From an uncultured Prevotella sp. (GTDB lineage Bacteria; Bacteroidota; Bacteroidia; Bacteroidales; Bacteroidaceae), in the NCBI GenBank assembly GCA_944321645.1, contig CALUMB010000010.1:1-47823 (forward strand): 47,823 nucleotides of DNA, given 5' to 3'. Shown here piece after piece: positions 7,058 through 47,751 of this stretch. Each line of letters begins with the position of its first letter. Positions within the stretch are counted from its first letter, which is position 1. The notes below the pieces were generated by a model, which saw only the letters and a list, made by a program, of their open reading frames with translations, was not told the DNA's origin and made no database searches. The translations under genes and the position numbers were made by a program.

Positions 7058-7167
7058 GAAATATGCCGTTTTGGCCTTCAAAACGGCGCGTATTGTGAGC
7101 TGAAACAGGCCGTTTGGCATTGCGAAACAAGCCGTTTTGCAATGCCAAACGGCACTGTGTTAAATCC
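7058..7167. repeat. 22-bp palindromic tandem array A (5 units)
   Basis: Units start at 7058, 7080, 7102, 7124 and 7146, exactly 22 bp apart. Each has a core close to AAACGGSCCGTTT and a linker such as TGCAATGC. The last unit runs into GTGTTAAATCC (7157-7167), a tail also found near arrays C and D. The rest of the gap 6780-7281 shows only the promoter above and no gene. Confidence 0.9.
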
Positions 7168-7281
7168 GGCGGCGGTCGGGCCGTATTTTAGTTGCGTATG
7201 TTCAATTAGCTTGTTGCACTCGCCAGGCCGGGCGGATGGTATGCCGCGCCGGGCCGGCGGAGTGCGATGAAGCCCCGGCTC

Positions 7282-9111
7282 CTACAGCGACTGCATATCG
7301 TTCAGCTTCTTGTAGTAGCCGCCGATGGCCAGAAGCTCCTCGTGGGAGCCGTGCTCCACTATCTCGCCCTCGTGTATGACGTATATCTCGTCGGCGCTCT
7401 TGATGGTCGACAGGCGGTGGGCTATGGCCACGGTGGTGCGCGTCTTCATCAGCCTTTCGAGCGCGTCCTGCACCAGCCGCTCGCTCTCGGTGTCGAGGGC
7501 CGACGTGGCCTCGTCGAGTATGAGTATCGGCGGGTTCTTCAGTATGGCGCGGGCTATGCTCACTCGCTGCCGCTGCCCGCCCGAGAGCCGGCTGCCCCGG
7601 TCGCCGATGTTGGTGTCGAAGCCGTGCTCCGACTCCATTATGAAGTCGTAGGCGTTGGCTATGCGGGCGGCCTCGTCTATCTGCTCCTGCGTGGCCCCGT
7701 CCACTCCGAAGGTGATGTTGTTGCGGAACGAGTCGTTGAAGAGTATCGCCTCCTGGTTGACGTTGCCTATGAGCTGGCGCAGGTCGTGTATGCCCAGGTC
7801 CTTGACGTTCACCCCGTCGATGAGCACTTCGCCCTCCTGCACGTCGTAGTAGCGCGGTATGAGGTCGACGAGCGTGGACTTGCCGCCGCCGCTCTGGCCC
7901 ACGAGGGCTATCGTCTTGCCTTTCTCTATGGTGAGGTTGATGTGGCGCAGCACCCACTTGGAGTCGTACTTGAACGACACGTCGCGGAACTCTATGCTGT
8001 GGCGGAACTCGCGTATGCGCACCGGGTTGGCCTTCTCGCGTATGGGGTTTTCGGCCTTCAGTATCTTGTTTATGCGCTCCATGGATGCCAGTCCGTTGGG
8101 TATTGCATAGCCGGCCTTGGCTATTTCCTTCAGTGGGTTGATGATGCTGTAGAGTATTACGAGGTAGTATATGAACGTTGGGCCGGACAGCGTGGAGTTG
8201 TTGAGCACCAGGATGCCGCCGAACCAGAGCACAATCATGATCATGACCGTGCCGAGGAACTCGCTCATGGGGTGGGCGAGCTGCTGCCTGATGTTCACCC
8301 TCATTATGCTGTTGCGCTGCCGGTCGTTCACGTCGGCGAAGCGGTTGTTCATCTTTTCCTCGGCGCAGAAGGCCTTGATTATGCGCAGTCCGCCCAGCGT
8401 CTCCTCCACCTGGCTCATCGTGTCGCTCCACAGGGCCTGCGCCTCCTTGGAGTTCTGCTTGAGCTTGCGGCCCAGGTTGCCCATCACCCAGCCCATCAGC
8501 GGCACGATGGCGAGCGTGAACAGCGTGAGCTGCCAGCTGATGAAGACGAGCGTGGCGAAGTAGGCCACTACGAGGATAGGGTTCTTTATGAGCATGTCGA
8601 GCGACGACATTACGGAGCTTTCCACTGCGTTCACGTCGCCGGTCATGCGGGCTATTATGTCGCCCTTGCGCTCGCCGGAGAAGAATCCGAGCGGCAGCGA
8701 GGTTATCTTGCGGTAGAGCAGGTTGCGTATGTCGCGCACTATGCCCGTGCGCATCGGCACGATGGAAGCCGAGGAGAGGAAGTAGCATCCCGTCTTGAGG
8801 AACGTGGCGAAGGCCATGACAGCACCTATGCAGAGCAGGGCGGTGCTCGGCCCGATGTCGGCTATGAGCTGGTTGGCGTAGAAGTTCATGTTGTTCATCA
8901 GCACGTCCTTCAGGTTTCCGTCGCCCATGGCCATCAGCGCCGTGGCGCTCTTGGCGTCGCCGGTCTTGAAGAGAATCTGCAAGATGGGGATGAGCGCCGC
9001 GAACGAGAAGATGTTGAGCGCGGCGGACAGGATGTTGAAGATAATGGACTGCGCCAGGTATCGCTTGTATGGCGGGATGAAGCGGCGCATTAACAGTAGG
9101 AATTCTTTCAT
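7282..9111 (-). CDS. MsbA-like ABC exporter (fused TM and ATPase)
   Basis: 609-residue half-transporter that would dimerise in the inner membrane and export a lipid or other hydrophobic substrate using ATP. Residues 1 to about 340 hold six membrane segments. The ATPase domain has Walker A GQSGGGKST (405-413), signature LSGGQRQR (509-516), Walker B ILILDEATSALD (529-540) and H-loop His565. Architecture fits MsbA/lipid-A exporter type; the substrate is inferred. It lies 163 bp downstream of miaB on the same strand, separated by a phrase-repeat region, so cotranscription is uncertain. Confidence 0.9.
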   Translation of the reverse strand: MKEFLLLMRRFIPPYKRYLAQSIIFNILSAALNIFSFAALIPILQILFKTGDAKSATALMAMGDGNLKDVLMNNMNFYANQLIADIGPSTALLCIGAVMAFATFLKTGCYFLSSASIVPMRTGIVRDIRNLLYRKITSLPLGFFSGERKGDIIARMTGDVNAVESSVMSSLDMLIKNPILVVAYFATLVFISWQLTLFTLAIVPLMGWVMGNLGRKLKQNSKEAQALWSDTMSQVEETLGGLRIIKAFCAEEKMNNRFADVNDRQRNSIMRVNIRQQLAHPMSEFLGTVMIMIVLWFGGILVLNNSTLSGPTFIYYLVILYSIINPLKEIAKAGYAIPNGLASMERINKILKAENPIREKANPVRIREFRHSIEFRDVSFKYDSKWVLRHINLTIEKGKTIALVGQSGGGKSTLVDLIPRYYDVQEGEVLIDGVNVKDLGIHDLRQLIGNVNQEAILFNDSFRNNITFGVDGATQEQIDEAARIANAYDFIMESEHGFDTNIGDRGSRLSGGQRQRVSIARAILKNPPILILDEATSALDTESERLVQDALERLMKTRTTVAIAHRLSTIKSADEIYVIHEGEIVEHGSHEELLAIGGYYKKLNDMQSL

Positions 9112-9274
9112 TTATATATTTTAAGGAGTTAAGGAGTTGCAGGAGTCAAGGGGTTAAGGCGAATGCTTTTTGGGCGCCAAGGAGTTGCAGGGGGCCAAGG
9201 AGTCAAGGCGTATGCGGGGCGGCAGGACGCCGCCCGGGGCATTTTAAGCACTTCGACTCTTCACTCTTCACTTT
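9112..9274. repeat. Phrase array with two core motifs between miaB and the exporter
   Basis: On the plus strand, 9121-9160 repeats TTAAGGAG-type phrases and then reads GGCGAATGCTTTTTGGG (9158-9174); a second run ends in GGCGTATGCGGGG (9207-9219). A GC hairpin follows (arms 9217-9223 and 9229-9235). On the minus strand the miaB stop is embedded in repeats of AGTGAAGA (9246-9290). Confidence 0.75.
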
Positions 9275-10624
<1,350 letters not shown>

Positions 10625-10647
10625 CTGCTTTTTAAGCGTTGCGGCGG

Positions 10648-10678
10648 CAAAGTTACTCTAAAAATGGTAGCTGGCAAA
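10648..10678 (-). promoter_or_regulatory. Promoter of miaB
   Basis: -7 TAACTTTG (10648-10655) and -33 TTTG (10675-10678) with a 19-bp spacer, the classic Bacteroidota arrangement. Leader is about 17 nt. Confidence 0.75.
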
Positions 10679-10753
10679 ATAAAACACGCACAAAACGGTG
10701 TGCCGCGCGCGCCAATCCGTAAAAGATATACGGGCGGGTTGGCAGATTTTGCG

Positions 10754-10761
10754 TAACTTTG
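10754..10761 (+). promoter_or_regulatory. -7 box of the C-S lyase gene
   Basis: TAACTTTG ends 19 bp before the ATG at 10781. No good TTTG at -33 was seen. Confidence 0.5.
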
Positions 10762-10780
10762 CAGGCGCAAAACAAGCATT

Positions 10781-15975: not shown

Positions 15976-16112
15976 GCAACTGTCTGGCTGCCAGCGAGTT
16001 ATGAAACAGGCCGTTTTGCGCTCCAAAACGGCCTGTTTTGCAACGCGAAACGGGTCGTTTCGCAGCCTGAAACGGGCCGTTTTGGAAAGCAAGACGGCAC
16101 ATATTGCCACGC
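15976..16112. repeat. 22-bp palindromic tandem array B (5 units) with flank
   Basis: Units start at 16003, 16025, 16047, 16069 and 16091, period exactly 22. The left flank (15976-16002) contains CTGGCTGCCAGCGAGTTAT, which reappears in changed form on the minus strand beside array E (40917-40944). The right side reads AAGGCGCACC (16113-16122), also present beside E. It lies between convergent genes. Confidence 0.9.
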
Positions 16113-21360: not shown

Positions 21361-21536
21361 GGATTTAACACGTCGGAAAGTGGCGAAATAGAAATCGGCT
21401 GCCGGTTTTTGCCCCGCCGAAAGCCCGTCCGGGCAGCCTTGCTTTGCAATATGTGCCGTTTCGCGATGCAAAACGGCACGTTTTAGGATGCGAAACGAGC
21501 CGTTCCAGAAAGCCAAACGCCACACTTTGCGGGTCG
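21361..21536. repeat. 22-bp array C (4 units) with conserved tail
   Basis: Units start at 21449, 21471, 21493 and 21515 (period 22). The left tail has GGATTTAACAC (21361-21371) and GAAATAGAAATCGGC (21384-21398), both found inverted beside array D. The surrounding gap 20940-22043 is about 1.1 kb long and convergent; besides the array I see one orphan -7-like box (TACCTTTG, minus, 21149-21156) and no credible gene. Confidence 0.9.
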
Positions 21537-28539: not shown

Positions 28540-29715
28540 ATGGACGACTTTTTGTTTTACAGCCCCACCGAGTTCGTGTTTGGCCGGGGCGTGGAGTGCA
28601 AGGCGGGGAGCCTTGTGAAGGCCTGCGGCGGGCGCAAGGCCGTGGTGGTTTATGGCGGCGGCTCTGCCGTGCGCAGCGGCTTGCTGGCCCGTGTGGAGCA
28701 GTCGCTGGCCGAGGCGGGCGTGGGCTATGTAGAGCTTGGGGGCGTGCAGCCAAACCCCACCGACCCCAAGGTGTACGAAGGCATCGGCCTTGCCCGCAGC
28801 TCCGGGGCCGACTTCATGCTCGCCGTGGGCGGCGGCTCGGTGATAGACACGGCCAAGGCCATTGCCGCCGGCGTGCCTTACGGGGGCGATTTCTGGGATT
28901 TCTTCGCGGGCCGCGCCGTGCCTGAGAGGGCGTTGCCTGTGGGCGTGGTGCTCACCATACCGGCGGCCGGCAGCGAGGGTTCTGGCAACAGCGTGATAAC
29001 GAAGCTCGACGGGCTGCACAAGCTCAGCCTGCGCACGCCCAAGGTGCTGCGCCCGGCCTTCGCACTGATGAACCCCGAACTGACGTTCACCCTGCCCGCG
29101 TGGCAGACGGCCTGCGGCGCCACCGACATGATGGCGCACATCATGGAGCGGTACTTCACCAACACCCTTGGCACCGAAGTGGCCGACCGTATGTGCGAGG
29201 GAGTGCTCCGGGCGATAGTGGAGGAGACGCCGAAGGCACTGGAGACCCCCTGCGACTACGACGCGCGGGCCAACCTGATGTGGGCCGGCACGGTGGCGCA
29301 CAACGGCACGTGCGGCGTGGGCTGCGAGGAGGACTGGGCGTCGCACTTCATGGAGCACGAGGTGAGCGCCGTCTACGGCGTTACCCACGGCGCGGGCCTT
29401 GCCGTCATCTTCCCGGCCTGGCTCACCTATATGGCCGCCCACAACCCGCGCAAGGTGGAGCAGTGGGCGCGGCGCGTGTGGGGCGTCGCCCCGGGTGCCG
29501 ACGCAACGGCCACCGCGCTCGAGGGCGTGGCTCGCTTCAAGCGTTTCCTCGGCTCGATAGGGATGCCCACCACGTTTGCGCAGCTCGGCATCGCCCACCC
29601 CGACATACCGCTGCTCGTCAGCAAGCTGCACGAGAACAAGGGCGAGCTTGTGGGCAATTACGTGCGCCTCGACCGCTGCGCCACGAGCGAAATCTATGCC
29701 CTGGCAGAGCAGTGA
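28540..29715 (+). CDS. Iron-containing alcohol dehydrogenase (BDH/YqhD-like)
   Basis: 391 residues of the group III (iron-containing) alcohol dehydrogenases; reduces aldehydes such as butyraldehyde with NAD(P)H in the cytoplasm. Opening MDDFLFYSPTEFVFGRGVE, nucleotide site VVVYGGGSAVRSG and VGGGSVIDTAKAIA, and metal ligands in CGATDMMAHIMERYF and GVTHGAGLAVIFP. The butanol-dehydrogenase subgroup is favoured by the N-terminus. Start at 28540 is set by homology. The last codons and TGA are inside the left arm of a 35-bp inverted repeat. Confidence 0.92.
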   Translation: MDDFLFYSPTEFVFGRGVECKAGSLVKACGGRKAVVVYGGGSAVRSGLLARVEQSLAEAGVGYVELGGVQPNPTDPKVYEGIGLARSSGADFMLAVGGGSVIDTAKAIAAGVPYGGDFWDFFAGRAVPERALPVGVVLTIPAAGSEGSGNSVITKLDGLHKLSLRTPKVLRPAFALMNPELTFTLPAWQTACGATDMMAHIMERYFTNTLGTEVADRMCEGVLRAIVEETPKALETPCDYDARANLMWAGTVAHNGTCGVGCEEDWASHFMEHEVSAVYGVTHGAGLAVIFPAWLTYMAAHNPRKVEQWARRVWGVAPGADATATALEGVARFKRFLGSIGMPTTFAQLGIAHPDIPLLVSKLHENKGELVGNYVRLDRCATSEIYALAEQ

Positions 29716-29820
29716 AGTTAAGAATTAAGAAGTAAGAGTTAAGAAAATATGCTTGTCCGATTGTGGTGCGCAACAGTATTTTTTATTAACTCTTACTTCT
29801 TAATTCTTAACTTCACTGCT
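29708..29820. repeat. Perfect 35-bp inverted repeat overlapping a stop codon
   Basis: Arms 29708-29742 and 29786-29820 are exact reverse complements, loop 43 nt. The left arm begins inside the alcohol dehydrogenase CDS (last 8 nt) and is built of TTAAGAA/AGTAAGA phrases; the loop opens with AAAATATGCTTG. The right arm thus contains an inverted copy of the gene end. Confidence 0.97.
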
Positions 29821-30077: not shown

Positions 30078-30245
30078 AAGACGTGCCGTTTTGGCTCCTG
30101 AAACGTGCCGTTTGGCAATGCAAAACGACCCGTTTCGCATTGCGATATGTGCCGTTTTGGAAAACGGGCGGGGCTTTTTGCCTTTGCAACGGGCAGGAAA
30201 CCGCCCGCCGATTTCTATTTCACCGGTTTTTGAAGTGTTAAATTC
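30078..30245. repeat. 22-bp array D (4 units) with conserved tail
   Basis: Units start at 30078, 30100, 30122 and 30144 (period 22). The tail holds GCCGATTTCTATTTC (30207-30221) and GTGTTAAATTC (30235-30245), the inverse of the module beside array C. Confidence 0.9.
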
Positions 30246-32384: not shown

Positions 32385-32406
32385 TTGCAGTGGGAAAATT
32401 TAGTAA

Positions 32407-32562
32407 TTAAGGAGTTAAATCTTAGGAGTTAAGGAGTTAATAGGGAGTAAAGGAGTTAAGACGTATGCTTAAGTGGAAGCCTTCAACGACATCCATGAAA
32501 GCCATTGTCTTAACTCCTTTACTCCCTATTAACTCCTTAACTCCTAAGATTTAACTCCTTAA
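32407..32562. repeat. Perfect 56-bp inverted repeat made of TTAAGGAG phrases
   Basis: Arms 32407-32462 and 32507-32562 are exact reverse complements; loop 44 nt starting GTATGCTTAAGTGG. The right side continues with further TAACTCC phrases to 32612. It lies between the convergent TonB receptor and PAP2 genes. Confidence 0.97.
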
Positions 32563-32619
32563 CTCCTAAGATTTAACTCCTTTACTCCTAAAATATAATT
32601 CCTTAACTCCTAAAAAGCC

Positions 32620-35855: not shown

Positions 35856-38075
35856 ATGGGAAAGAAAAAAGGCGGAAAACGCATGAACAAGAAGCAGATG
35901 GCGGAGGCCTTGCAGGGCCTCTTCGCCGCCTCGGCGGGCGAGACGCTGTCGCTGAAGTACATATTCAAGCAGCTCGGACTCGACACCCACCCGCTGAAGA
36001 TGCTCGCGGTGGACGTGCTCGAGGAGATGGCGTGGGACGACTACCTAACCCGCATGAGCGACAACTCGTACCGGCTCAACACCAAGACGCAGGTGCAGGA
36101 GGGCAAGTTCCGCCGCAAGGCGAACGGCAAGAACTTCTTCGTGCCTGACGACGGCTCCGAGCCGGTGTTCGTGGCGGAGCGCAACTCCATGTCGGCGCTC
36201 GACGGAGACCGCGTGCAGGCCGTGTTCATGGCGCGCCGCCCGAGGCACATCAAGGAGGCTTCCATCACCGCGATACTGCAGCGCGCACGCGACACTTTCG
36301 TCGGGAAGCTGCGCGTCGACAAGGACATGGCCGTGCTCGTGACGCCCGACAACATCTTCGTGCACGACATAATAATACCCAAGCGCAAGCTCAAGGGCGG
36401 CAAGACCGGCCAGAAGGCCGTGGTGAAAATCACCCAGTGGCCCGACGACGAGCACAAGAACATGGTGGGAGAGGTGGTCGACGTGCTCGGCGAGCAGGGC
36501 GACAACGACGTGGAGATGAACTCTATACTCGCCCAGTATGGCCTGCCGTACAAGTACCCAAAGGCCGTGGAGGACGCCGCCAACAAGATTTCGGACGCCA
36601 TCACCGACAAAGACCTGGAGGGCAGGGAGGACTTCCGGGGCGTGTTCACTTGCACGATAGACCCGCGCGACGCCAAGGACTTCGACGACGCGCTGTCCAT
36701 ACGCCGCCTCGGGGGCGGCCTGTGGGAGGTCGGCGTACACATAGCCGACGTGTCGCACTACGTCACCGAAGGCTCGATAATAGACAAGGAGGCGGTGAAG
36801 AGGGCCACGAGCGTCTACCTCGTCGACCGAACCATACCTATGCTCCCGGAGCGTTTGTGCAACTATATATGCTCGCTGCGCCCCGACGAGGACAAGCTCG
36901 CCTTCAGCGTGGTGTTCTCCCTCGACGACGAGGCCGAGGTGAAGGACTACCGCATCGTGCATACGGTGATAAGGAGCGTGCGCCGCTACGCCTACGAGGA
37001 GGTGCAGCAGCTGCTCGAGGACAACGGGGTGGTGGACGGGACGGGGCAGCCCGCGCCCGCGCCGGGGCCTGAAGGCTACAAGGGCGAGCACGCCGCCGAA
37101 CTGGTAAAGCTCGACGCCCTGGCCAAGAAGCTGCGCGAGGCGAGGTTCAAGGGCGGCTCGGTGAAGTTCGACCGCGAGGAGCTTCACTTCGACGTTGACG
37201 AGAAAGGGCATCCCACGCGCTGCTATTTCAAGAAGTCGAAGGACGCCAACAAGCTGATCGAGGAGTTCATGCTGCTGGCCAACCGCACCGTGGCCGAGAG
37301 CGTGGGCAGGGTGAAGAAGGGGCAGAAGGCCAAGACGCTGCCATACCGAGTGCACGACCAGCCAGACCCGACGAAGCTCGAAACGCTGCGCACGTTTGTG
37401 GTGAAGTTCGGCTACAAGCTCAAGACCGCAGGCACGCGCGGCGCAATATCGAAGAGCCTTAACGCCCTGATGGACGGCTGCCAGGGCAAGAGGGAGCAGA
37501 AACTCATCGAGACCGTGGCCCTAAGGGCGATGATGAAGGCCAAGTACACCATACACAACATTGGCCACTATGGGCTGGCCTTCGACTACTACACCCACTT
37601 CACGTCGCCCATACGCCGCTATCCCGACACGATGGTCCACCGCCTCCTGACGCGCTACCAGCAGGGAGGGCGCTCCGTTAACAAGGAACGCTGCGAGGAG
37701 CTGTGCGAGCACTGCAGCGACATGGAGCTTGTGGCGCAGAACGCCGAGCGCGACTCCATCAAGTACAAGATGGTGGAGTTCATGGCCGACAAGGTCGGCA
37801 GCGAGTACGACGCCCACATAAGCGGCATAACGTCTTACGGCATCTACTGCGAGATAGACGAGAACCACTGCGAGGGGATGGTGCTCATGCGCGACCTCGA
37901 CGACGACTACTACGACTTCGACGAGCGCAACTACTGCCTCGTTGGCCGCCGCCATCACCACCGCTACCAGCTCGGCGACCCGATAAGGATTAAGGTGGCC
38001 AAGGCCAACGTGGAGAAAAGGCAGCTGGACTTCGTGCTGGCGGAGGAAAATAAAGGTAAAAAGGTAAAGAAGTAA
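35856..38075 (+). CDS. rnr: Ribonuclease R
   Basis: 739 residues, 3'-5' exoribonuclease of the RNase II/R family that degrades structured RNA. Order: basic N-terminus with HTH-like domain, cold-shock domains (about 85-230), RNB catalytic domain with CTIDPRDAKDFDDALS (Asp cluster, about 266-281), YTHFTSPIRRYPDTMVHR, and a C-terminal S1 domain. The last eight residues (KGKKVKK tail) are encoded by a GGTAAAAAG phrase repeat that continues past the stop. A weak -7 (TTACTTTG, 35766-35773) lies upstream. Confidence 0.96.
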   Translation: MGKKKGGKRMNKKQMAEALQGLFAASAGETLSLKYIFKQLGLDTHPLKMLAVDVLEEMAWDDYLTRMSDNSYRLNTKTQVQEGKFRRKANGKNFFVPDDGSEPVFVAERNSMSALDGDRVQAVFMARRPRHIKEASITAILQRARDTFVGKLRVDKDMAVLVTPDNIFVHDIIIPKRKLKGGKTGQKAVVKITQWPDDEHKNMVGEVVDVLGEQGDNDVEMNSILAQYGLPYKYPKAVEDAANKISDAITDKDLEGREDFRGVFTCTIDPRDAKDFDDALSIRRLGGGLWEVGVHIADVSHYVTEGSIIDKEAVKRATSVYLVDRTIPMLPERLCNYICSLRPDEDKLAFSVVFSLDDEAEVKDYRIVHTVIRSVRRYAYEEVQQLLEDNGVVDGTGQPAPAPGPEGYKGEHAAELVKLDALAKKLREARFKGGSVKFDREELHFDVDEKGHPTRCYFKKSKDANKLIEEFMLLANRTVAESVGRVKKGQKAKTLPYRVHDQPDPTKLETLRTFVVKFGYKLKTAGTRGAISKSLNALMDGCQGKREQKLIETVALRAMMKAKYTIHNIGHYGLAFDYYTHFTSPIRRYPDTMVHRLLTRYQQGGRSVNKERCEELCEHCSDMELVAQNAERDSIKYKMVEFMADKVGSEYDAHISGITSYGIYCEIDENHCEGMVLMRDLDDDYYDFDERNYCLVGRRHHHRYQLGDPIRIKVAKANVEKRQLDFVLAEENKGKKVKK

Positions 38076-38240
38076 AAAGGTGAAAAAGGCCGCTTAAGGG
38101 TAAAAAGGTAAAAGGGTAAAAAGGTGAAAAGGGCTGCGCATTGTTTCTCCCAGAGACGTTGCGCAGCCTTTTTCGCTTCCTGCCACTTGTCATGGCGCAG
38201 CCTTTTTTTACCTTTTTGCTTCTTTACCTTTTTACCTTTA
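38051..38240. repeat. Phrase array and imperfect inverted repeat at the rnr stop
   Basis: The left arm 38051-38090 (25 nt of it coding) pairs with 38200-38240 with three differences; phrases are GGTAAAAAG and GTAAAGAAG. Inside are more phrases and a terminator hairpin. Confidence 0.85.
38127..38173 (+). terminator. Terminator of rnr
   Basis: Nine-bp stem GGCTGCGCA/TGCGCAGCC (38132-38140 and 38160-38168), extended by A-T pairs, then TTTTT. Confidence 0.8.
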
Positions 38241-38281
38241 GAAGTCCCTTTTTGCCTTTTTACTTCTTTACCCTTTTACCT

Positions 38282-39469
38282 TTAAAACGCTTCGTTGATG
38301 TTGAACATGAAGCCGCTCTGGCCTCCTTTGCCGAAGCCGTAGTCGAGGCGCACGTTTACGTTCTTCTTGAACTCCCAGCGGTAGCCCAGTCCGTAGTTCG
38401 GCAGCACGTGCGCCATGCGCACCTGGCTGAACTTGCTGAACACCGTGCCGGCGCCGACCCACACCACCACGCCGTTCCTGCGCCAGACGTGCTGGCGCAG
38501 TTCCACCTGCGCCTCCACCTTGTGCTTGTCGCGGTAGCGGCCCTCGTAGTAGCCGCGCATGGAGTAGGGGCCGCCCAGCTTGGCCATCATGGCCCACGAG
38601 GGGTTGCCGAAGTTGAGCGTCGAGCGCACGTCGGCGGCTATGGTGGCGCCGCGCCAGGCCGGAGCGTAGGCGTCGGCCCGCAGCTCGGTGGTGCTGAAGC
38701 AGTAGTCGTTGCCGAGGAAGCGCGGGCGGAACGACTGCTCTATGTTTACGTAGAAGCCCCGGTGTGGGTTGGTGGCCACGTCGCGCGTGTCGTACATCAG
38801 CGTAAGCCCGAGGCCGAAGTTGTGGGTGCGCGTGCCCATGCCCTCTATGAGTTCGGGCCGCTCGAAGTCGTAGCCGCGCACGAAGTCGTAGGCCGCCATG
38901 GGGCCGAAGTAGAGGTTTGGCGCCACGCGCCATAGGAAGCTGGCCTTGGCCTGCGCCTGGAAGCGGTTCATGTCAGACTCGTTGGCGTCGTCGTTGCCCA
39001 TGTCGTAGCCCAGGCCCCAGAACTTGGAGGGGAAGGAGTAGAAGTAGAGCGTGTAGTCGATGCGGTAGCGGTCGCGCGGCGCGATGTGCAGCCCCCGCAC
39101 GCCGAGCATGTAGAAGCCCACGGTGGACACGTCGCCGAAGAGCGACACGTTGCTCGGCATGAGCGTGGTGTCGCGGCGGTCGGTGCTGTAAAGCCCGGCG
39201 GCCACGAGGCCCAGTCCGAGCTGCGTGTTGGTGTTGTAGTGCGGCCCGCCGAGTATGCTGAAGTCGAACTTCTTGTCCCGCCGGCCCTTGTTGGCGTTGC
39301 GGAAGTAGTCGGCCACGCGCCTGCCGAGGCTGCGGCGCTGTGGCGCGGAGTCGGCCTTGACGGCCAGTGTGGTGTCTGCGGCTGTCCTTGTGGTGCCGGC
39401 CTTTGTGTCGGCACTGGCTGCGGTGGCTGTGAACAGTGCCGCCAGAGCCGCGGGCAAGAGCTTTTTCAT
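38282..39469 (-). CDS. BamA/TamA-family outer-membrane barrel protein
   Basis: 395 residues. Signal peptide 1 to about 20 (ends ASA). There are no recognisable POTRA domains; the mature part is mainly the 16-strand Omp85 barrel: FDFSILGGPHYNTNTQLGLGLVAAGLY, YMLGVRGLHIAPRDRYR, LMYDTRDVATNPHRGFYVNIEQSF, and MRGYYEGRYRDKH, which resembles the lid-loop (I/V)RGF motif. It ends ...FMFNINEAF with a terminal Phe for Bam insertion. Without POTRAs it is unlikely to be BamA itself; surface-antigen-like or lipid-related roles are open. Its TAA runs into GGTAAAAGGG phrases (38241-38284). Confidence 0.85.
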   Translation of the reverse strand: MKKLLPAALAALFTATAASADTKAGTTRTAADTTLAVKADSAPQRRSLGRRVADYFRNANKGRRDKKFDFSILGGPHYNTNTQLGLGLVAAGLYSTDRRDTTLMPSNVSLFGDVSTVGFYMLGVRGLHIAPRDRYRIDYTLYFYSFPSKFWGLGYDMGNDDANESDMNRFQAQAKASFLWRVAPNLYFGPMAAYDFVRGYDFERPELIEGMGTRTHNFGLGLTLMYDTRDVATNPHRGFYVNIEQSFRPRFLGNDYCFSTTELRADAYAPAWRGATIAADVRSTLNFGNPSWAMMAKLGGPYSMRGYYEGRYRDKHKVEAQVELRQHVWRRNGVVVWVGAGTVFSKFSQVRMAHVLPNYGLGYRWEFKKNVNVRLDYGFGKGGQSGFMFNINEAF

Positions 39470-40835: not shown

Positions 40836-40944
40836 AAAACGGCCTGTTTCGCGCCCTGAAACGGGCCGTTTTGCAATGCGAAACGGGCCGTTTTGGAAGC
40901 CAAGACGACCCGTTTCGGTAACTGCTTGTCAGCCAGGCCGTTGC
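40836..40944. repeat. 22-bp palindromic tandem array E (4 units) with flank
   Basis: Units start at 40836, 40858, 40880 and 40902 (period 22). Units 2 and 3 are the closest to consensus in the window. The right flank (to 40944) on the minus strand matches the left flank of array B; TAAGGCGCACC follows (40945-40955). The rest of the gap 40519-41036 is GC-rich with no gene seen. Confidence 0.92.
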
Positions 40945-41036: not shown

Positions 41037-43805
41037 TCAGTGGGCTTCGAGCCAGTTTGCGCCCCAGCCGCAGTCGGCCACGAGCGGCACGCTCATGGGG
41101 AACGCGCCCTGCATCTCCTCTATGACGATGCGCTCCACGAGTTCCTTCTCTTCGGGCAGTACGCTGAAGTTGAGTTCGTCGTGTACCTGGAGTATCATCT
41201 TCGAGCGCACGCCCTCGGCCTCGAAGCGGCGGGCGATGCGCACCATGGCCACCTTTATTATGTCGGCCGCCGTGCCTTGTATCGGGGCGTTGATGGCGTT
41301 GCGCTCGGCGAAGCCGCGCACGGTGGCGTTGCGCGAGTTGATGTCGGGCAGGTAGCGGCGGCGGCGGAACAGCGTCTCGACGTAGCCCTGCGCCCTGGCC
41401 TGCTCCTTGGCCTTCTCCATGTAGTCGCGCACGCGGGGGAAGGTGTCGAAGTAGCCGTCGATTAGCTGCCGCGCCTCGTCGCGGCTTATGCCGAGCCGCT
41501 CGGCCAGCCCGAACACGGTTATGCCGTAGATTATGCCGAAGTTGGCCCGCTTGGCCTTTGTGCGCTGGTCGCGGCTCACCTCCTCGATAGGCACCTTGTA
41601 GATGCGTGCCGCCGTGGCGGCGTGTATGTCGTGGCCCTCGCGGAATGCCTCTATCATGTTCTCGTCGCCGCTCAGGTGGGCCATCACGCGCAGCTCAATC
41701 TGGCTGTAGTCGGCAGAGAAGAAGAGGCAGCCCGGCTCCGGCACGAAGGCGCGGCGTATCTCCTTGCCGTCCTCGCCGCGCACGGGTATGTTCTGCAGGT
41801 TGGGGTCGCTGGAGGATAGGCGGCCCGTGGCCGTGACGGCCTGGTTGAACGATGTGTGTATGTGGCCCGTGCGCGGGTTGACGAGCTTGGGCAGCGCGTC
41901 GACGTAGGTGCTCAGCAGCTTCTTCAGCCCACGGTGCTCGAGTATGTGGCCCACTATCTCGCTCTTGCCGCGCAGCGACTGCAGCACCTCCTCGCTCGTT
42001 ACGTACTGCCCGCTCTTGGTCTTTTTTGGCTTGTCCACTATCTTCATGCGGTCGAAGAGCACCTCGCCCACCTGCTTTGGCGACGAGATGTTGAACTCTG
42101 TGCCGGCCAGGGCGTAGACCGCCTGCTCCACCTCGCGCATCCGCCCGGTGAGTATGGCCGACGTCTCGGCGAGCGAGGCCGTGTCGAGCCTCACGCCGTT
42201 AAGCTCCATCGCGGCGAGCACGGGCATGAGCGGCATCTCCACTTCGCCGAAGAGCTGCCCGGCGCCTATGCGCCCCAGCTCAGGCTCCAGGAGGTTCTTG
42301 AGCCGCAGGGTCACGTCGGCGTCTTCGGCGGCATACTCGTACACCTGCTCCGGCGGCAGGTCGCGCATGGAGAGTTGCTTCTTGCCCTTGGGGCCGATAA
42401 GCTCGTCGATGTGTATGGTCTGGTAGTTCAGGTATGCCTCGGCCATGAAGTCCATGTTGTGGTGAAGCTCGGGCTGGATGATGTAGTGGGCCAGCATCGT
42501 GTCGAACATCGGCCCGGCCAGCCGCACGCCGTAGCCCGCCAGCACCTCGAGGTCGTACTTTAGGTTTTGCCCAATCTTCAGTATCGAGGGGTGTTCGTAC
42601 AGCGGTTTGAAAATGTTTACGGTCTTTAAGGCTTCTTCACGGTTGGCCGCCACCGGCACGTAGAACGCCTTGCCTTCCTCGGCGGCGAAGCTCAGCCCTA
42701 CGAGTTCGGCCTCGATGGCGTGCGTCGAGGTGGTCTCTGTGTCTAAACTCACGGCTTGTTGTGTCAACAAAAAGTCACGCAGGCTTAGTATATCATCCTC
42801 TGCCACAACGAGTTTGTAGTCGTGCGGAGTGGTGTTTATCGTGTCAAAATGGGCTGATTCGCGGCTTCCTTCATCCTCGCCCGTGTTTTCCGCAAAGAGA
42901 CTTTGCTGCAAATTGTCTTTCGTTTGCTTATTTTCGGTTTTTTTAAGGATGCGGTTCTTGAAGCTCTTGAACTCCAGTTCGTCGAACAGTTCGCCGAGGC
43001 GTGCCTCGTCAGGCGCCTCCACTTTAAGCCCGTCGAGGTCAAGCTCGATCGGCACGTCGGTCTTGATGGTGGCCAGGTACTTCGAGAACGCTATCTTGTC
43101 GGCGTTCTCCTCCACCTTCTTCTTCAGCGCGCCCTTCAGCCTGTCGGTAGAGGCGAGCAGGCTTTCCACCGTGCCGAACTCGGCTATTAGCTTGGCGGCG
43201 GTCTTCTCGCCCACGCCCGGGCAGCCCGGGATGTTGTCTGCCGAGTCGCCCATCAGGCCGAGCAGGTCTGTCACCTGCGCCGGCGAGGCAATGCCATACT
43301 TGGCCTTCACCTCGTCGGGGCCCATCACCTCGTAGCCCGCGTCGCCGTAGCGCGGGCGGTACATCCACACGTTCGGGCCCACGAGCTGGCCGTAGTCCTT
43401 GTCGGGAGTGAGCATGAAAGTCTGCACTCCGGCCTGCCCGGCCTTGGTGGCGAGCGTGCCTATCACGTCGTCGGCCTCGTAGCCGTCGGCCTCGAGTACA
43501 GGTATGCGGTAGGCCCGCAGTATGTCTTTTATCACCGGCACCGACCGCTTGATGTCTTCGGGGCAGGCTTCGCGCTGCGCCTTGTACTCCGGGAACGCCT
43601 CGTGGCGGAAGGTTGGGCCGGCGGGGTCGAACGCAACGCCCACGTGCGTGGGCTTCTCCTTGGTGAGCACCTCGTTGAGCGTGTTTACGAAACCCATTAT
43701 GGCCGAAGTGTTCAGGCCCTTGGAGTTGACGCGCGGGTTCTTGATGAAGGCGTAGTAGGCGCGGTATATGAGCGCGTATGCGTCCAAAAGAAACAGTTTA
43801 TCCAT
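41037..43805 (-). CDS. polA: DNA polymerase I
   Basis: 922 residues, full-length three-domain enzyme for Okazaki-fragment maturation and repair. The 5'-3' exonuclease spans residues 1 to about 290 (LFLLDAYALIYRAYYAF; YEADDVIGTLA; LMGDSADNIPGCPGVGEKTA). The 3'-5' exonuclease domain retains SLDTETTS and YAAEDADVTLRL, so proofreading looks intact. The polymerase domain has FFSADYSQIELRVMAHLSGD, KRANFGIIYGI and LQVHDELNF. An A/T-rich region upstream has a near -7 (TAATTTTA, 43826-43833). It is divergent from the polyprenyl synthase. Confidence 0.97.
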   Translation of the reverse strand: MDKLFLLDAYALIYRAYYAFIKNPRVNSKGLNTSAIMGFVNTLNEVLTKEKPTHVGVAFDPAGPTFRHEAFPEYKAQREACPEDIKRSVPVIKDILRAYRIPVLEADGYEADDVIGTLATKAGQAGVQTFMLTPDKDYGQLVGPNVWMYRPRYGDAGYEVMGPDEVKAKYGIASPAQVTDLLGLMGDSADNIPGCPGVGEKTAAKLIAEFGTVESLLASTDRLKGALKKKVEENADKIAFSKYLATIKTDVPIELDLDGLKVEAPDEARLGELFDELEFKSFKNRILKKTENKQTKDNLQQSLFAENTGEDEGSRESAHFDTINTTPHDYKLVVAEDDILSLRDFLLTQQAVSLDTETTSTHAIEAELVGLSFAAEEGKAFYVPVAANREEALKTVNIFKPLYEHPSILKIGQNLKYDLEVLAGYGVRLAGPMFDTMLAHYIIQPELHHNMDFMAEAYLNYQTIHIDELIGPKGKKQLSMRDLPPEQVYEYAAEDADVTLRLKNLLEPELGRIGAGQLFGEVEMPLMPVLAAMELNGVRLDTASLAETSAILTGRMREVEQAVYALAGTEFNISSPKQVGEVLFDRMKIVDKPKKTKSGQYVTSEEVLQSLRGKSEIVGHILEHRGLKKLLSTYVDALPKLVNPRTGHIHTSFNQAVTATGRLSSSDPNLQNIPVRGEDGKEIRRAFVPEPGCLFFSADYSQIELRVMAHLSGDENMIEAFREGHDIHAATAARIYKVPIEEVSRDQRTKAKRANFGIIYGITVFGLAERLGISRDEARQLIDGYFDTFPRVRDYMEKAKEQARAQGYVETLFRRRRYLPDINSRNATVRGFAERNAINAPIQGTAADIIKVAMVRIARRFEAEGVRSKMILQVHDELNFSVLPEEKELVERIVIEEMQGAFPMSVPLVADCGWGANWLEAH

Positions 43806-43874: not shown

Positions 43875-43890
43875 TATCAAATTTCGGTTA

Positions 43891-44868
43891 ATGGACTATT
43901 TATCTCTCATCAAGGAGCCAATAGCGGGCGAGCTGGAGCGCTTTAACTCGCTCTTCGACGAATCCATGAGCCACACCGACGGTTTGCTGTCGCAGGCTTT
44001 GGCGCACATCAGGAAGAAGGCGGGCAAGCGGATGCGCCCGATGCTTATACTGCTGATGGCCCGCAACTACGGCCTTGTGACCCCGGCCACGCAAGACGCC
44101 GCCGTTGGACTGGAGCTTCTGCACACGGCCAGCCTCGTGCACGACGACGTGGTGGACGAGAGCTGCGAGCGCAGGGGGCAGGCTTCGCTCAACGCGACGT
44201 ACAACAACAAGGTGGCGGTGCTCGTGGGCGACTACCTGCTCTCCACGGCGCTGCTGCACGTATCGCTCACAGGCAACCAGGCCATAGTGCAGTACCTTGC
44301 GGAGCTTGGCCGCACGCTGGCCAGCGGCGAGATACTGCAGCTGTCCAACATACGCAACAGTGAGGTTTCGGAGGAGGTCTACTACCAGGTAATCCGCCAG
44401 AAGACCGCCGCGCTCTTCGAGGCTTGCTGCGCCATTGGCGCACTCTCGGCGGGAGCCGACCAGGCCGACATCGAGGCGGCGAAGAACTTCGGGCGCAACC
44501 TCGGCATCATCTTCCAGATACGCGACGACATATTCGACTACTACCCTTCGGCCACCATCGGCAAGCCCACGGGCAACGACATGGCCGAGGGCAAGCTCAC
44601 CCTGCCGGCCATCTACGCGCTTAACTCCACCGCCGACGGGCGCATGATGGCCATTGCACGGCGCGTGAAGGAAGGCACGGTGTCGCCCGATGAAATCGCC
44701 GCCCTGGTGGCTTTTACCAAAGAAAACGGCGGAATCGAGTATGCCGAGCGCCGCATGGAGGAGCTGCGCGGCCTGTGCTGCGGCTTCATTGAGGCCAACG
44801 TGGCCGACGCGGAGATAGCCCGCGCCCTCACGGCCTACGTGGATTTTGTGATCGATAGGAGCAAATGA
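43891..44868 (+). CDS. trans-Polyprenyl diphosphate synthase (long chain)
   Basis: 325 residues. First Asp-rich motif HDDVVDES at about 84-91 and second DDIFDYYP at 212-219, both intact; KKAGKRMRPMLILLMA binds IPP. Condenses IPP onto an allylic diphosphate to make the side chain of menaquinone (octaprenyl type, IspB-like). Chain length cannot be read with certainty from the sequence. It has its own -7 box and is followed by a phrase array. Confidence 0.93.
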   Translation: MDYLSLIKEPIAGELERFNSLFDESMSHTDGLLSQALAHIRKKAGKRMRPMLILLMARNYGLVTPATQDAAVGLELLHTASLVHDDVVDESCERRGQASLNATYNNKVAVLVGDYLLSTALLHVSLTGNQAIVQYLAELGRTLASGEILQLSNIRNSEVSEEVYYQVIRQKTAALFEACCAIGALSAGADQADIEAAKNFGRNLGIIFQIRDDIFDYYPSATIGKPTGNDMAEGKLTLPAIYALNSTADGRMMAIARRVKEGTVSPDEIAALVAFTKENGGIEYAERRMEELRGLCCGFIEANVADAEIARALTAYVDFVIDRSK

Positions 44869-44883
44869 TTTGGCGGGATGGCT

Positions 44884-44925
44884 TGGGTTAATTAGGCTAA
44901 TTGGTCGAATTGGACTAATTTGGCC
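44884..44925. repeat. Phrase array, TTGGACTAATT type, downstream of the four-helix gene
   Basis: Plus strand shows GGGTTAATTAGGCTAATTGG, then TCGAATTGGACTAATTTGG. It abuts the stop of the minus-strand four-helix-bundle gene and mirrors the array upstream of that gene. Confidence 0.75.
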
Positions 44926-45512
44926 TAAAGGTTCGTTTGGCTCTTGCCGCCGTTGAGCTGGCGCCACTCTGTCCTTGCCCGGTACATTTCTTCTTTTATG
45001 CCTCCGTTTTCTACGAAATCCTTCTTAAGCCTGTCTATTAGCTTCCTTAAGAAAACATCGGTTTGGTGGATGAGCGTTATGGCAATGTTCGCCACGGTCT
45101 CGTCGGAGCGTATCTTGATTGCTTCGCGGTAGTAGGCACTGTCGTTGTGCTTTGAGCATACTGTGCGCGTTTGGGTTGCCTTTTAGGAGTCTGGCGGCCA
45201 CGTGTTCAGGCTCCTTACGCGCAAGTAGTCCTCGTAGTCTGTCAATAGTTCTTGCAGGCTTGCCCGTGCCACGTTTATCAGCTTTAGTTCGGTTTCTTTT
45301 GAAGTTGTGCTCGCAGCGCTTCCCTCGGCTATGTTTTGCTTGCACGAGCGTGCTGCCTGCACCATCTGGTCTATCGTCCTGTCGCCTTTTTCGAGGTGTT
45401 TGTGGGCGAAATAGAATGTTATGTCATAGATGCATTCTGCTTTCTTGTAGGCAATAAGTTTCCTGTAGTTTCCGCGGTTAGGAAGGAATTCTTTGCTTGG
45501 CTGGTTATTCAT
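44925..45512 (-). pseudogene. Four-helix-bundle protein with suffix domain, in-frame TAA
   Basis: Starting at 45512 (MNNQPSKEFL), codons 1-109 encode the four-helix-bundle core (YRKLIAYKKAECIYDITFYF, GDRTIDQMVQAARSCKQNIAEG, LQELLTDYEDYLRVRSLNTW). Codon 110 is TAA (45183-45185). The same frame then runs 85 more codons to TAG at 44925 and still reads as the suffix domain: KHNDSAYYREAIKIRSDET, ITLIHQTDVFLRKLIDRLKK, MYRARTEWRQLNGGK. So a single stop splits an otherwise intact gene. The family is related to 23S rRNA intervening-sequence proteins and DGR Avd; function unknown. A 109-residue protein may still be made. Confidence 0.82.
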
Positions 45513-45550
45513 TGTTTGTGGCGTTTTGTTGGGTTGTTGGTTGGTTTTGG

Positions 45551-45606
45551 GCGTTTGTTGGGTTATTGGACTAATTAGCCCAATTTGTCTAATTAGTCCA
45601 ATTGCC
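45551..45606. repeat. Phrase array with perfect 14-bp hairpin upstream of the four-helix gene
   Basis: ATTGGACTAATTAG (45565-45578) and its exact complement (45589-45602), loop 10 nt. It lies between the deoC stop and the four-helix gene. Confidence 0.85.
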
Positions 45607-45624
45607 CCAATTTTTTCTTTTCCC

Positions 45625-46557
45625 TCAGAAGAACTTCGTCTCCTCCCCAACTATTTCGCTCAGCAGCATGTTGGCCAGGCGGCTCGTGCCGAGGCGGAGC
45701 CACTGGTTGGTGAGCCACGTTTCGCCCAGTACCTCTTTCACGATGGTGTAGTAGGTGAGCGCGTCGGTGACCGAGTTTAGCCCCCCGGCGGGCTTGAATC
45801 CAACCTGTATGCCGGTTTCGTTGTAGTATTCGCGTATGGCCTGGCACATCACGTAGGCTGCCTCTGGCGTGGCGGCAGGCTCGAGCTTGCCCGTGGATGT
45901 CTTGATGTAGTCGGCCCCGGCGTACATAGCGAGCAGCGAGGCTTTCTTGATGTTCTCGGCGGTCTTGAGGCAGCCCGTCTCGAGTATCACCTTCATCTTG
46001 CGCTCGCCGCACACGTCCTTCAGCTCGCTTATCTCGTCGCACAGGCCCTCGTAGTCGCCGCTTAGGAACTTGCCCACGGGCATCACGATGTCTATTTCGG
46101 TCGCGCCGTCGCCCAAGGCAAGGGCCGTCTCGGCCACCTTCACCTCCGGGAAGGTCTGCGACGACGGGAAACTGCCCGACACGCAGGCTATCTCCACGCC
46201 CTCAACTTCGAGCGACTGGCTCACCGTCTTGGCAAAGCAGGGGTAGACGCAGATGGTGGCCACGTGCGGAAGGTCGGGGTAGGAGTCCTCGAACTGGTTG
46301 ACGCGCTCGGTGAGTGCCAGTATGCTTTCGTCGGAGTCGGTGGTCTTTAGCGACGTAAGCTCGATGCTGCCCATCAGGAACCGCTTCGCCTCCGGCGTGT
46401 CGTTCTCGTGCACTTTCTCGGCTATCAGCTTCCTTACGGCGGCCCGCACGTCGTCGTCGGCTATCTTCGTGTCGTACTTGGCCAGTGCCTCTTCGTACCT
46501 GCTCATGCGCGGAGCCTCGTCGTGGCTGTGTGCGCTGTTGTTGTGTTTGTCAGTCAT
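45625..46557 (-). CDS. deoC: Deoxyribose-phosphate aldolase
   Basis: 310 residues. Class I aldolase that splits 2-deoxyribose-5-phosphate into glyceraldehyde-3-phosphate and acetaldehyde in nucleoside catabolism. Schiff-base Lys219 in GADYIKTSTGK and Lys255 in VGFKPAGG are present, as are CVYPCFAKTV and EIDIVMPVGKF. The N-terminus has an extra 20 hydrophilic residues rich in His and Asn; Met18 is an alternative start. Its start overlaps the mazG stop by 8 bp, so dtd, mazG and deoC form an operon. Confidence 0.96.
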   Translation of the reverse strand: MTDKHNNSAHSHDEAPRMSRYEEALAKYDTKIADDDVRAAVRKLIAEKVHENDTPEAKRFLMGSIELTSLKTTDSDESILALTERVNQFEDSYPDLPHVATICVYPCFAKTVSQSLEVEGVEIACVSGSFPSSQTFPEVKVAETALALGDGATEIDIVMPVGKFLSGDYEGLCDEISELKDVCGERKMKVILETGCLKTAENIKKASLLAMYAGADYIKTSTGKLEPAATPEAAYVMCQAIREYYNETGIQVGFKPAGGLNSVTDALTYYTIVKEVLGETWLTNQWLRLGTSRLANMLLSEIVGEETKFF

Positions 46558-46891
46558 TGTTGGTGAGTTTTTCGTTGTTTTTATGCCTTTCTTTGTCTCT
46601 CTCGGTCTTTTTCCCTATGTTGCGGCGCAGCTCTTCGGTCAGGTCCGTGCCAGTCTGGTTGGCTATGCAGAGCAGCACCCAGAGCACGTCGGCCATCTCG
46701 TCGCCGAGGTTGGCCTTCTCGCCGGGCTTGAAGCTCTGGTCGCCGTAGGTGCGGGCCATTACCCGCGCCAGCTCGCCCACTTCCTCGGTGAGCACGGCCA
46801 TGTTCGTAAGCTCCGAGAAGTAGCGCACGCCGTAGGTGCGTATCCAGTCGTCAACCATACGTTGCGCCTGGCGGATGGTTATGTCGTCCAT
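46550..46891 (-). CDS. MazG-type nucleotide pyrophosphohydrolase
   Basis: 113 residues, single MazG-like domain of the all-alpha NTP pyrophosphatases. Metal-binding helices show LTEEVGELARVMARTYG (ExxE) and LGDEMADVLWVLLCIAN (ExxD). Hydrolyses (d)NTPs to monophosphates, probably as house-cleaning. The C-terminus is charged and probably flexible. It starts 33 bp after dtd and overlaps deoC by 8 bp. Confidence 0.9.
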   Translation of the reverse strand: MDDITIRQAQRMVDDWIRTYGVRYFSELTNMAVLTEEVGELARVMARTYGDQSFKPGEKANLGDEMADVLWVLLCIANQTGTDLTEELRRNIGKKTERDKERHKNNEKLTNND

Positions 46892-46924
46892 AGTGGGATT
46901 TGTGCTAAGTTTGCTGTGTCTGCC

Positions 46925-47377
46925 TCACTCCTTGTTCTTCGTGTCCATGCAGATGGTCACGGGGCCGTCGTTGACCAGTTCCACCTTCATGTCGGCGCCG
47001 AACTCGCCCGTGGCCACGGGGCGGCCTGTGGCCTCGGCCATGAGGGCGCAGAAGCGCTCGTAGAGCGGTATGGCGATGGAGTGGGGCGCGGCGTGGATCC
47101 ACGAGGGGCGGTTGCCCTTCTTGTAGGATGCCATGAGCGTGAACTGGCTCACCACCAGCACCTCGCCGCCGACGTCTGCCAGGGCCAGGTTCATCACGCC
47201 CCCGTCGTCGTCGAACACGCGCAGGGCGGCTATCTTCCTCACGAGCCACCGGGCGTCTTCCTCGGTGTCGTCGGCCGTGATGCCGAGCAGTACCATGAAG
47301 CCGGGGCCTATGGCCGACTTAACCTGCCCGCCTATGGTGACCGATGCGCGGCTCACGCGCTGTATCACTGTTCTCAT
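46925..47377 (-). CDS. dtd: D-aminoacyl-tRNA deacylase
   Basis: 150 residues, normal size. Removes D-amino acids and glycine mis-attached to tRNA. Start MRTVIQRVSRASVTIGG; then LLGITADDTEEDARWLVRKI, the DTD signature SQFTLMASYKKGNRPSW, and the Gly-Pro motif NDGPVTICMDTKN near the end. Start at 47377 is certain from the conserved N-terminus; a long upstream frame is only repeat array F. First gene of dtd-mazG-deoC. Confidence 0.96.
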   Translation of the reverse strand: MRTVIQRVSRASVTIGGQVKSAIGPGFMVLLGITADDTEEDARWLVRKIAALRVFDDDGGVMNLALADVGGEVLVVSQFTLMASYKKGNRPSWIHAAPHSIAIPLYERFCALMAEATGRPVATGEFGADMKVELVNDGPVTICMDTKNKE

Positions 47378-47488
47378 TCTTTGCTGTGGTTTTGTTTTGC
47401 TTGTCGTGTGCATGTTGCGCCCTGATGCGGCTGCGGGGGCCGTGGCGAGGCGCGGCAGCCGTGGCGTGGGGGCAACCATGCCGTGTTG

Positions 47489-47519
47489 CAAAGATAGCGA
47501 TTTTGGGCTTAATCCCAAA
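47489..47519 (-). promoter_or_regulatory. Promoter of the dtd operon
   Basis: -7 TATCTTTG (47489-47496) and TTTG (47516-47519), spacer 19. Leader about 105 nt. Confidence 0.7.
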
Positions 47520-47685
47520 ATTTGGCGGCGGGTTTTTGCGCTTCCCTTGTGCCGAATTTTTTGTTGTGCGGGGCGGGTTTTCGGTAAAAATGTTTGACTG
47601 TCTGGCTTTGGCAAATAGATTCCAAAGGCTCTGTTTTGGCCCCGTATCGGCCGCTTTTGCCGCCGCTTTTCGCCCCGCCGGATGC

Positions 47686-47751
47686 GGCGGGTGCCGTTTT
47701 GGGTTGCGAAACGACCCGTTTTAGAGAGCCAAACGGCCTGTTTCGCAACCA
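47686..47751. repeat. 22-bp palindromic array F (3 units)
   Basis: Units start at 47686 (weak), 47708 and 47730. The array stops abruptly at 47751, where unrelated A/T-rich sequence begins. Confidence 0.85.

What the first reader, a model, noticed from the sequence alone, without database searches (positions are those of the whole stretch)
7058..47751. Six intergenic arrays of a palindromic repeat with an exact 22-bp period
Arrays A 7058-7167, B 16003-16112, C 21449-21536, D 30078-30165, E 40836-40923 and F 47686-47751 hold 25 units in total. Units stay in strict 22-bp register although their bases vary, so spacing is conserved better than sequence. Each unit has the core AAACGGSCCGTTT and a linker near TGCRWTGC; the reverse complement of a unit is again a valid unit. 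Twenty-two bp is close to two helical turns, so palindromic sites would lie on one DNA face, which would suit a dimeric DNA-binding protein (a nucleoid, partition or regulatory factor). Paired units could equally form RNA hairpins. None lies in a divergent promoter region in view. I know of no described element of this form.
Basis: partly seen in the sequence, partly recalled or inferred. Interest (0 to 1): 0.88.

Follow-up and report, generated by a model that had tools for sequence, protein, structure and literature searches.

The report
Four-unit 22-bp intergenic Prevotella repeat element
Between genes, certain Prevotella bacteria carry many copies of a small DNA element built from four 22-base near-palindromes at exact spacing; the spacing stays the same between lineages while the letters in the middle change, which points to an undescribed DNA-bound or mobile system.

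Summary
In 1.186 Mb examined of the 2.697-Mb source genome (inferred Prevotella), all 209 spacings under 200 bp between strong units are 22 or 44 bp; of 94 arrays, 63 have exactly four units. None of the 82 arrays with three or more units overlaps a gene call.

The arrays are cores of larger elements. One subfamily has ends found 31 and 32 times beside arrays and 0 times elsewhere. Its 32 copies with both ends are 217, 218 or 213 bp long (17, 13, 2), although the 217-bp copies average 55% identity.

Seven of eight other Prevotella genomes sampled show the same plan, four AAA-N7-TTT units at 22 bp before a conserved 31-bp dyad, with lineage-specific N7.

Adjacent units are inverted copies above chance. 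The dyad shows no pairing covariation in 150 of 213 copies tested.

Best reading (0.42): anciently dispersed, geometry-locked elements that dock a dimeric protein of drifting specificity. Rivals: REPIN-like mobile repeat; RNA hairpins; inert MITE. It is filed under no tested family.

The parts
7058..7145 (-). Array A: four 22-bp units, core of a subfamily-1 element
6988..7205 (-).
7031..7057 (-). Anchor dyad of array A (1 mismatch to GCAAY-N3-YTG-N5-CAR-N3-RTTRC)
16003..16112 (+). Array B: five units, between convergent gene calls; cores of units 1 and 2 are reverse complements
15976..16002 (+). Anchor dyad of array B (1 mismatch)
21449..21536 (+). Array C: four units, subfamily 2
21364..21394 (+). 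Subfamily-2 left arm motif TTTAACAC..GAAATAGAAA of array C
30078..30165 (-). Array D: four units, subfamily 2; between co-directional gene calls
30212..30242 (-). Subfamily-2 left arm motif of array D
40836..40923 (-). Array E: four units, downstream of polA (41037-43805, -)
40918..40944 (-). Anchor dyad of array E (0 mismatches)
47686..47751 (.). Array F: two clear units (about 47708-47751) and one below cut-off, near the contig end

Best explanation
The arrays are the core of an intergenic DNA element with locked geometry: four quasi-palindromic sites of about 13 bp spaced 22 bp (about two helical turns) and, in many copies, a fifth conserved dyad (the anchor) about 21 bp further on, often inside longer arms. 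Shown: the geometry, the usual unit number, shared ends in part of the copies, intergenic placement, and a lineage-specific core inside a conserved frame. Inferred: copies spread long ago as units, since they share ends found nowhere else in the part examined. They now act in place as docking arrays on one DNA face for a dimeric DNA-binding protein whose specificity for the N7 core drifts between lineages while its footprint spacing does not. A role as a structural or transcriptional boundary at gene ends (convergent gaps are enriched) is a guess.
For: Strict register. Four units: 63 of 94 arrays; outside the clade, frame letters at offsets 0/22/44/66 in 57/52/38/31 of 70 anchored loci, falling to 4 of 70 at 88. 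Length: 30 of 32 full subfamily-1 copies are 217 or 218 bp at mean identity 0.55 and 0.64. The anchor dyad has no pairing covariation in 150 copies (z -0.2 to 0.9), so it looks like DNA-level symmetry. Central-7 match within a genome exceeds that between genomes (U3:U4 complementarity 4.69 vs 2.66; direct identity 3.92 vs 2.58). Orientation to genes is mixed (subfamily 1; subfamily 2, by hand 8 and 5 co-directional in the two senses, 4 convergent and 5 divergent of 22). Positions are partly shared between species: downstream of polA and at locus A.
Against: No binding protein was identified. Adjacent units are near-perfect inverted copies above chance in all four genomes tested, which protein binding alone does not predict. 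Perfect palindromic units are rare. An earlier, selection-biased test gave the anchor axis the highest pairing score of nine axes (8.0; next 5.8). The shared ends imply past dispersal, so a transposition machinery could have held the spacing instead. Only 32 of 82 arrays could be measured for length.
Confidence: 0.42

Rival explanations
1. A REP/REPIN-like non-autonomous mobile repeat: an enzyme that reads folded units copies the element, and selection for copying keeps the geometry while neutral letters drift, giving each lineage its own core family.
For: 94 arrays in 44% of the genome, intergenic; end motifs only beside arrays; 3 of 85 syntenic junctions have an array in the relative and none in G000; adjacent units inverted; lineage-specific cores; three array-bearing genomes (G341, G089, G150) do have a Y1_Tnp match. 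REPs are described as abundant, extragenic, in alternating orientation and species-specific (PMC2817692, abstract and passages).
Against: No Y1_Tnp (PF01797) match in 6 of 13 genomes: G000, G058, G133, G298, G249, G078, among them the array-rich G000 and G058 (G000 and G058 are 90% and 80% complete). No recent copies seen: the 14 best paralogue pairs printed are 73-85% identical, maximum 78% among the 217-bp copies. No terminal inverted repeat evident at subfamily-1 ends (by eye).
Confidence: 0.3
2. An RNA element: neighbouring units pair as 13-15 bp hairpins in transcripts and act at gene ends as processing, stability or termination signals.
For: Adjacent pairs with at least 14 of 15 complementary bases: 25 of 233 (9.1 expected), 16 of 107 (3.8), 11 of 56 (1.7), 5 of 39 (1.0) in G000, G058, G133, G089; direct matches at that lag 9, 3, 3, 1, at chance. 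Mean pairing raised in G058 and G133. Beside polA, U1 and U2 are complementary with different letters in G058, G065 and G286 and by eye in G298 and G078. Convergent gaps enriched (p=1e-4). Arrays with such a pair: 14 of 37 co-directional, 6 of 23 convergent, 2 of 18 divergent. RNA fold z below -2 in 30 of 30 arrays, expected of any such array.
Against: Mean pairing is not raised in G000, and covariation over 63 arrays shows no inter-unit helix. In 75 anchored arrays near-complete pairs barely exceed within-genome shuffles (U3:U4 36 vs 30.7, U1:U2 15 vs 9.6, U2:U3 14 vs 13.8). Anchor without covariation. The pair nearest a gene 3' end is not clearly favoured (15 of 83 vs 8 of 73, p=0.26). 18 of 78 arrays lie between divergent calls. 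T5 follows an outer unit in 6 of 164 cases. No Rfam match in the window arrays.
Confidence: 0.18
3. A degenerate MITE family with a trapped minisatellite, of the BrickBuilt kind, now without function.
For: Leader-repeat-tail layout, intergenic, Bacteroidales.
Against: Mostly fixed unit number and, in measurable copies, fixed length at 55% identity; no inverted ends seen (by eye).
Confidence: 0.1

Closest known systems
REP / BIME elements (PMC2817692 and PMC3733652; abstract and passages seen)
   Same: High-copy, extragenic, imperfect palindromes, regularly spaced, alternating orientation, species-specific families, preferentially between co-directional or convergent genes.
   Different: 22-bp unit pitch, mostly four units, conserved terminal anchor; no Y1 transposase found in 6 of 13 genomes, the source genome among them.
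REPINs (PMC3116915; passages seen)
   Same: Palindromic units at fixed distance that form a within-genome family, intergenic.
   Different: REPINs are inverted doublets with a spacer (71 bp between the ends in one group) and linked RAYT genes; here four contiguous 22-bp units, an anchor and unique arms.
BrickBuilt MITE of Porphyromonas gingivalis (PMC4596501; passages, section 5 and part 1 of section 7 read)
   Same: Bacteroidales, intergenic, short tandem unit inside a non-repetitive leader and tail.
   Different: 23-nt direct repeats, 1 to 22.8 units, IS5-like terminal inverted repeats, 19 copies.

Membership tests
REP/BIME with RAYT | Short imperfect palindromes, high copy, extragenic | tested here: met
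REP/BIME with RAYT | Cognate Y1 (IS200/IS605-like) transposase in genomes rich in the repeat | tested here: not met
   0 matches in G000, G058, G133, G298, G249, G078 (80-99% complete); one weak match each in array-bearing G341 and G089, two matches in G150
REP/BIME with RAYT | Terminal GTAG or CGTC tag of the two described REP superfamilies | not tested
   no call examined it
MITE (BrickBuilt type) | Terminal inverted repeats | tested here: not met
   the two ends of 32 subfamily-1 copies differ (read by eye; other subfamilies not tested)
MITE (BrickBuilt type) | Target site duplication | tested here: inconclusive
   none obvious in the printed flanks; copies are old and exact ends uncertain
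BrickBuilt | Variable number of 23-nt direct repeats | tested here: not met
   22 bp, mostly four units
CRISPR array | Near-identical repeats separated by unique spacers | tested here: not met
   contiguous diverged 22-bp units; cas genes were not searched for
Structured RNA family (Rfam 15) | Match at gathering score | tested here: not met
   one tRNA only in the window
Intrinsic terminator | Hairpin followed by T-run | tested here: not met
   T5 within 20 nt at 6 of 164 outer ends
Nucleoid or partition binding array | A cognate DNA-binding protein | not testable with these tools
   no candidate protein; needs pull-down or ChIP

The most novel reading that the evidence does not exclude
A chromosome element spread over much of Prevotella with a fixed mechanical plan (four dyads at 22 bp plus an anchor dyad) and a lineage-specific recognition code that has changed in concert at many loci of each genome, implying a co-evolving dimeric protein: a class of bacterial DNA architecture or boundary element not described before.
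Probability: 0.27. Interest if true: 0.88.

Novelty: new variant of a known kind. Interest (0 to 1): 0.7.

Why it matters
Dispersed palindromic repeats are, to my knowledge, best described in Proteobacteria and tied to RAYT transposases. Here Bacteroidales genomes, some of the richest without such an enzyme found, carry a repeat whose geometry is held harder than its letters and whose code differs between lineages. That makes the open question of whether such repeats are selfish or functional directly testable: a spacing-held, code-drifting array predicts a partner protein that can be fished out with the array itself, and a named species, Prevotella lacticifex (strain JCM 34664), carries it.

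Tried and rejected
Rejected: arrays as promoters or terminators with a set orientation (mixed contexts); as coding (no overlap with gene calls); RAYT mobilisation in the array-rich genomes; the anchor as an RNA stem (a test on 109 modules chosen by a symmetric seed gave its axis the top score, 8.0 of nine axes with 5.8 next; the test on 150 copies with free positions gave nothing); a nested hairpin about the array centre (that axis was the lowest, -3.9); association with the AAA-ATPase/PDDEXK_9 gene seen beside some arrays (2 homologues among 857 called genes, 1 beside an array, p=0.34).

Led nowhere or small: synteny for empty sites. Of 85 junctions (an earlier run on less sequence had 64), 81 had no array on either side, 3 had one only in the relative and 1 was shared; too few to measure turnover. 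One search found only 4 of subfamily 2 and stopped with an error before its last alignment; one search replaced that count with 23. The subfamily-2 right motif was not specific (15 near arrays, 26 elsewhere, 21 in the control). One search used a wrongly spaced pattern (0 of 30 genomes); one search repeated it corrected (15 of 30). In one search many of 29 genomes also showed 14-, 21- and 44-bp lags, largely from simple repeats, and G053 a 22-bp lag of that sort, so outside the clade only G128, G165 and weakly G312 count as 22-bp arrays of other cores beside polA.

Literature searched for this element: listings that do not name it; no papers. Subscription papers are mostly not held.

Full report
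Check of the observation. The six arrays stand in 22-bp register at the stated places. The window is contig C10 of a 2,696,984-base draft genome in 134 contigs, 89.6% complete. Single matches in a few other groups (for example Methanosarcina, Chloroflexi) look like chance. In 1,186,247 bases of this genome (44%), a 22-bp profile gives 300 strong units against 3 in shuffled and 24 in reversed sequence; spacings under 200 bp are 22 (198) or 44 (11) and nothing else. These make 94 arrays: 10 of one unit, 2 of two, 17 of three, 63 of four, 2 of five. Given the reversed control, some single units may be chance. Of the 82 arrays with three or more units none overlaps a gene call; 78 could be placed, and 37 are co-directional, 23 convergent, 18 divergent (my own simple gene caller). 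Convergent gaps are enriched over other gaps of 200 bp or more (p=1e-4), divergent ones are not depleted (p=0.45).

A larger element. Aligning the 63 four-unit arrays on their centre showed conservation out to about 110 bp each side (orientation inferred by iteration). Subfamily 1 has the ends TTGCAAATATGCAACTAAAA and GTTAANNTAAAAATGTTAA, found 31 and 32 times beside arrays and 0 times elsewhere in the part examined. The 32 copies with both ends are 217 (17), 218 (13) or 213 (2) bp long; the left end lies 68 bp before the first detected unit in 28 of 32. Mean pairwise identity is 0.548 (217 bp) and 0.643 (218 bp). The other 50 of 82 arrays lack one or both ends at this sensitivity, so their lengths were not tested. 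Subfamily 2 (23 copies by a looser motif) has its left motif at 84 or 77 bp, according to strand, in 21 of 23, and at 85 and 61 in the others; it is conserved over about 430 bp. Window array A is subfamily 1; C and D are subfamily 2; B and E carry the anchor described below.

Unit structure. Units are rarely perfect palindromes: of 317 in G000, 7 have no arm mismatch, 79 one, 129 two, 102 more. The commonest cores are GTGCC and its reverse GGCAC. Neighbouring units match each other's reverse complement at 14 or more of 15 bases in 25 of 233 pairs (9.1 expected), 16 of 107 (3.8), 11 of 56 (1.7) and 5 of 39 (1.0) in G000, G058, G133 and G089, while direct matches of neighbours are at chance (9, 3, 3, 1); at wider lags the picture is weaker and mixed. 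Mean pairing is raised in G058 and G133 but not in G000. This may be selection on some hairpins, or inverted copying of neighbouring units. Column covariation over 63 arrays of G000 showed no inter-unit helix, and the axis through the array centre was the lowest. In 75 anchored arrays of eight genomes near-complete pairs hardly exceed within-genome shuffles.

Distribution. Among 367 scored genomes of the genus (398 drawn, 31 not scored), polA is nearest in G058, G133, G341, G089 and G298 (82-84%), and all five have paired-core matches (151, 18, 43, 78, 8). Of 14 further near genomes only G249 has any (4). In a genus sample of 150, which includes the query, 5 match: G000 (86), G058, G089, G133 and a single chance-like match in G127. 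Prevotella lacticifex has 42; ten of its loci show arrays of three to five units.

Same plan, other letters. Many arrays end in a dyad, TTTNGCAAY-N3-YTG-N5-CAR-N3-RTTRC. It was found in 15 of 30 genomes, 213 matches against 1 for the control pattern. Upstream of 70 anchored loci from eight genomes outside the clade, AAA-N7-TTT frames (at least 5 of 6 letters) occur at offsets 0, 22, 44 and 66 in 57, 52, 38 and 31 loci and at 88 in only 4. The mean of all other offsets is 2%; only offsets one base either side of the peaks also score, as the A and T runs allow (the TTT of the last unit is fixed by the search itself). So four units is the rule there too. G016 (3 loci) and some of G286 do not fit by eye. 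The N7 core differs by lineage: CGGCCCA in G249 (45 of 62 framed units), GATGCCC in G053 (6 of 16), CCTACGC in G084 (4 of 12), GACGGCC in G078 (11 of 34) but also in G286 (4 of 12) and G004 (4 of 35), CGGCACG in G000 (73 of 290), G058 and G133, CAGGCCG in G089. So relatives share cores; it is a lineage code rather than one code per species. Own-genome complementarity of the central seven exceeds other-genome (U3:U4 4.69 vs 2.66) and so does direct identity (3.92 vs 2.58) in nine genomes. Downstream of polA, G128 and G165 show strong 22-bp repetition of cores unrelated to AAACGG.

DNA or RNA. The anchor stem shows no covariation in 150 of the 213 copies (z from -0.2 to 0.9 at six pairs); an earlier test on modules picked by a symmetric seed did favour that axis, which I put down to the picking. 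That favours a DNA-level dyad. For the units the evidence is split, as above. T-runs are rare (6 of 164 outer ends) and the window arrays have no Rfam match.

Mobile or fixed. Copies share unique ends, so they were once duplicated as units. The best paralogue pairs are 73-85% identical, so none looks recent. At locus A arrays follow the same ABC transporter gene in G000, G133, G089 and G058 (degenerate in G298 by eye, contig end in G341) and in none of five outgroups read. At locus B they are in G000 and G089, with two units in G133, and not in G341, G298 or G058. Beside polA there are four units in G000 and G058, two in G298, one in G133; G341 and G089 have only a two-unit hit about 1 kb away. 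Anchors were found in 6 of 29 polA-downstream stretches (G053, G000, G058, G133, G065, G286), with unit-like frames in register in G058, and partly in G065 and G286. The anchor faces opposite ways in some relatives, by eye. This is a mix of inheritance and turnover. No Y1 transposase was found in 6 of 13 genomes, G000, G058 and G133 among them; array-bearing G341, G089 and P. lacticifex do have matches (drafts, so absence is not certain).

Conclusion. The anatomy is well supported. The function is inferred: I prefer a docking array for a dimeric DNA-binding protein with drifting specificity (0.42), over a REPIN-like mobile repeat (0.30), an RNA element (0.18) and an inert MITE (0.10). It resembles REP/BIME and BrickBuilt in layout but fails a tested feature of each, so I do not file it as a member. 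On checking I changed 'species-specific' to 'lineage-specific' and mended several counts; the odds stand.

Noticed in passing
window 3650-5194 and 5232-6779 (-): Two tandem copies of an AAA-ATPase_like/PDDEXK_9 gene, 514 of 514 aligned residues identical: a very recent duplication.
   Followed up: partly
window 32396-32460 and 32509-32613; 38051-38134 and 38205-38283; 29714-29745 and 29786-29814; 44889-44928 and 45573-45612: Intergenic runs of short units whose partner run nearby looks like the reverse complement (TTAAGGAG/CTTAACTC, AAAGGTAA/TTTTTACC, TTAAGAA/TCTTACT, TAATTGGAC/AATTAGTCC), so possibly large hairpins built of simple repeats.
   Followed up: no
L214-L217, downstream of polA in G004, G065, G286, G078: Near-simple repeats of the kind GAAAAATGAATAAT with lags such as 14 and 44 bases in the same intergenic region.
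   Followed up: no
L345 and L346 (G128, G165): 22-bp arrays of unrelated cores (GTTACATGGGCCGTGTAAC; AAAACAGGCTATATT) beside polA.
   Followed up: partly
L267 (G075): Several copies of a GTACTATCGTTTT-type unit at about 22-base spacing on the far side of an anchor dyad (by eye).
   Followed up: no
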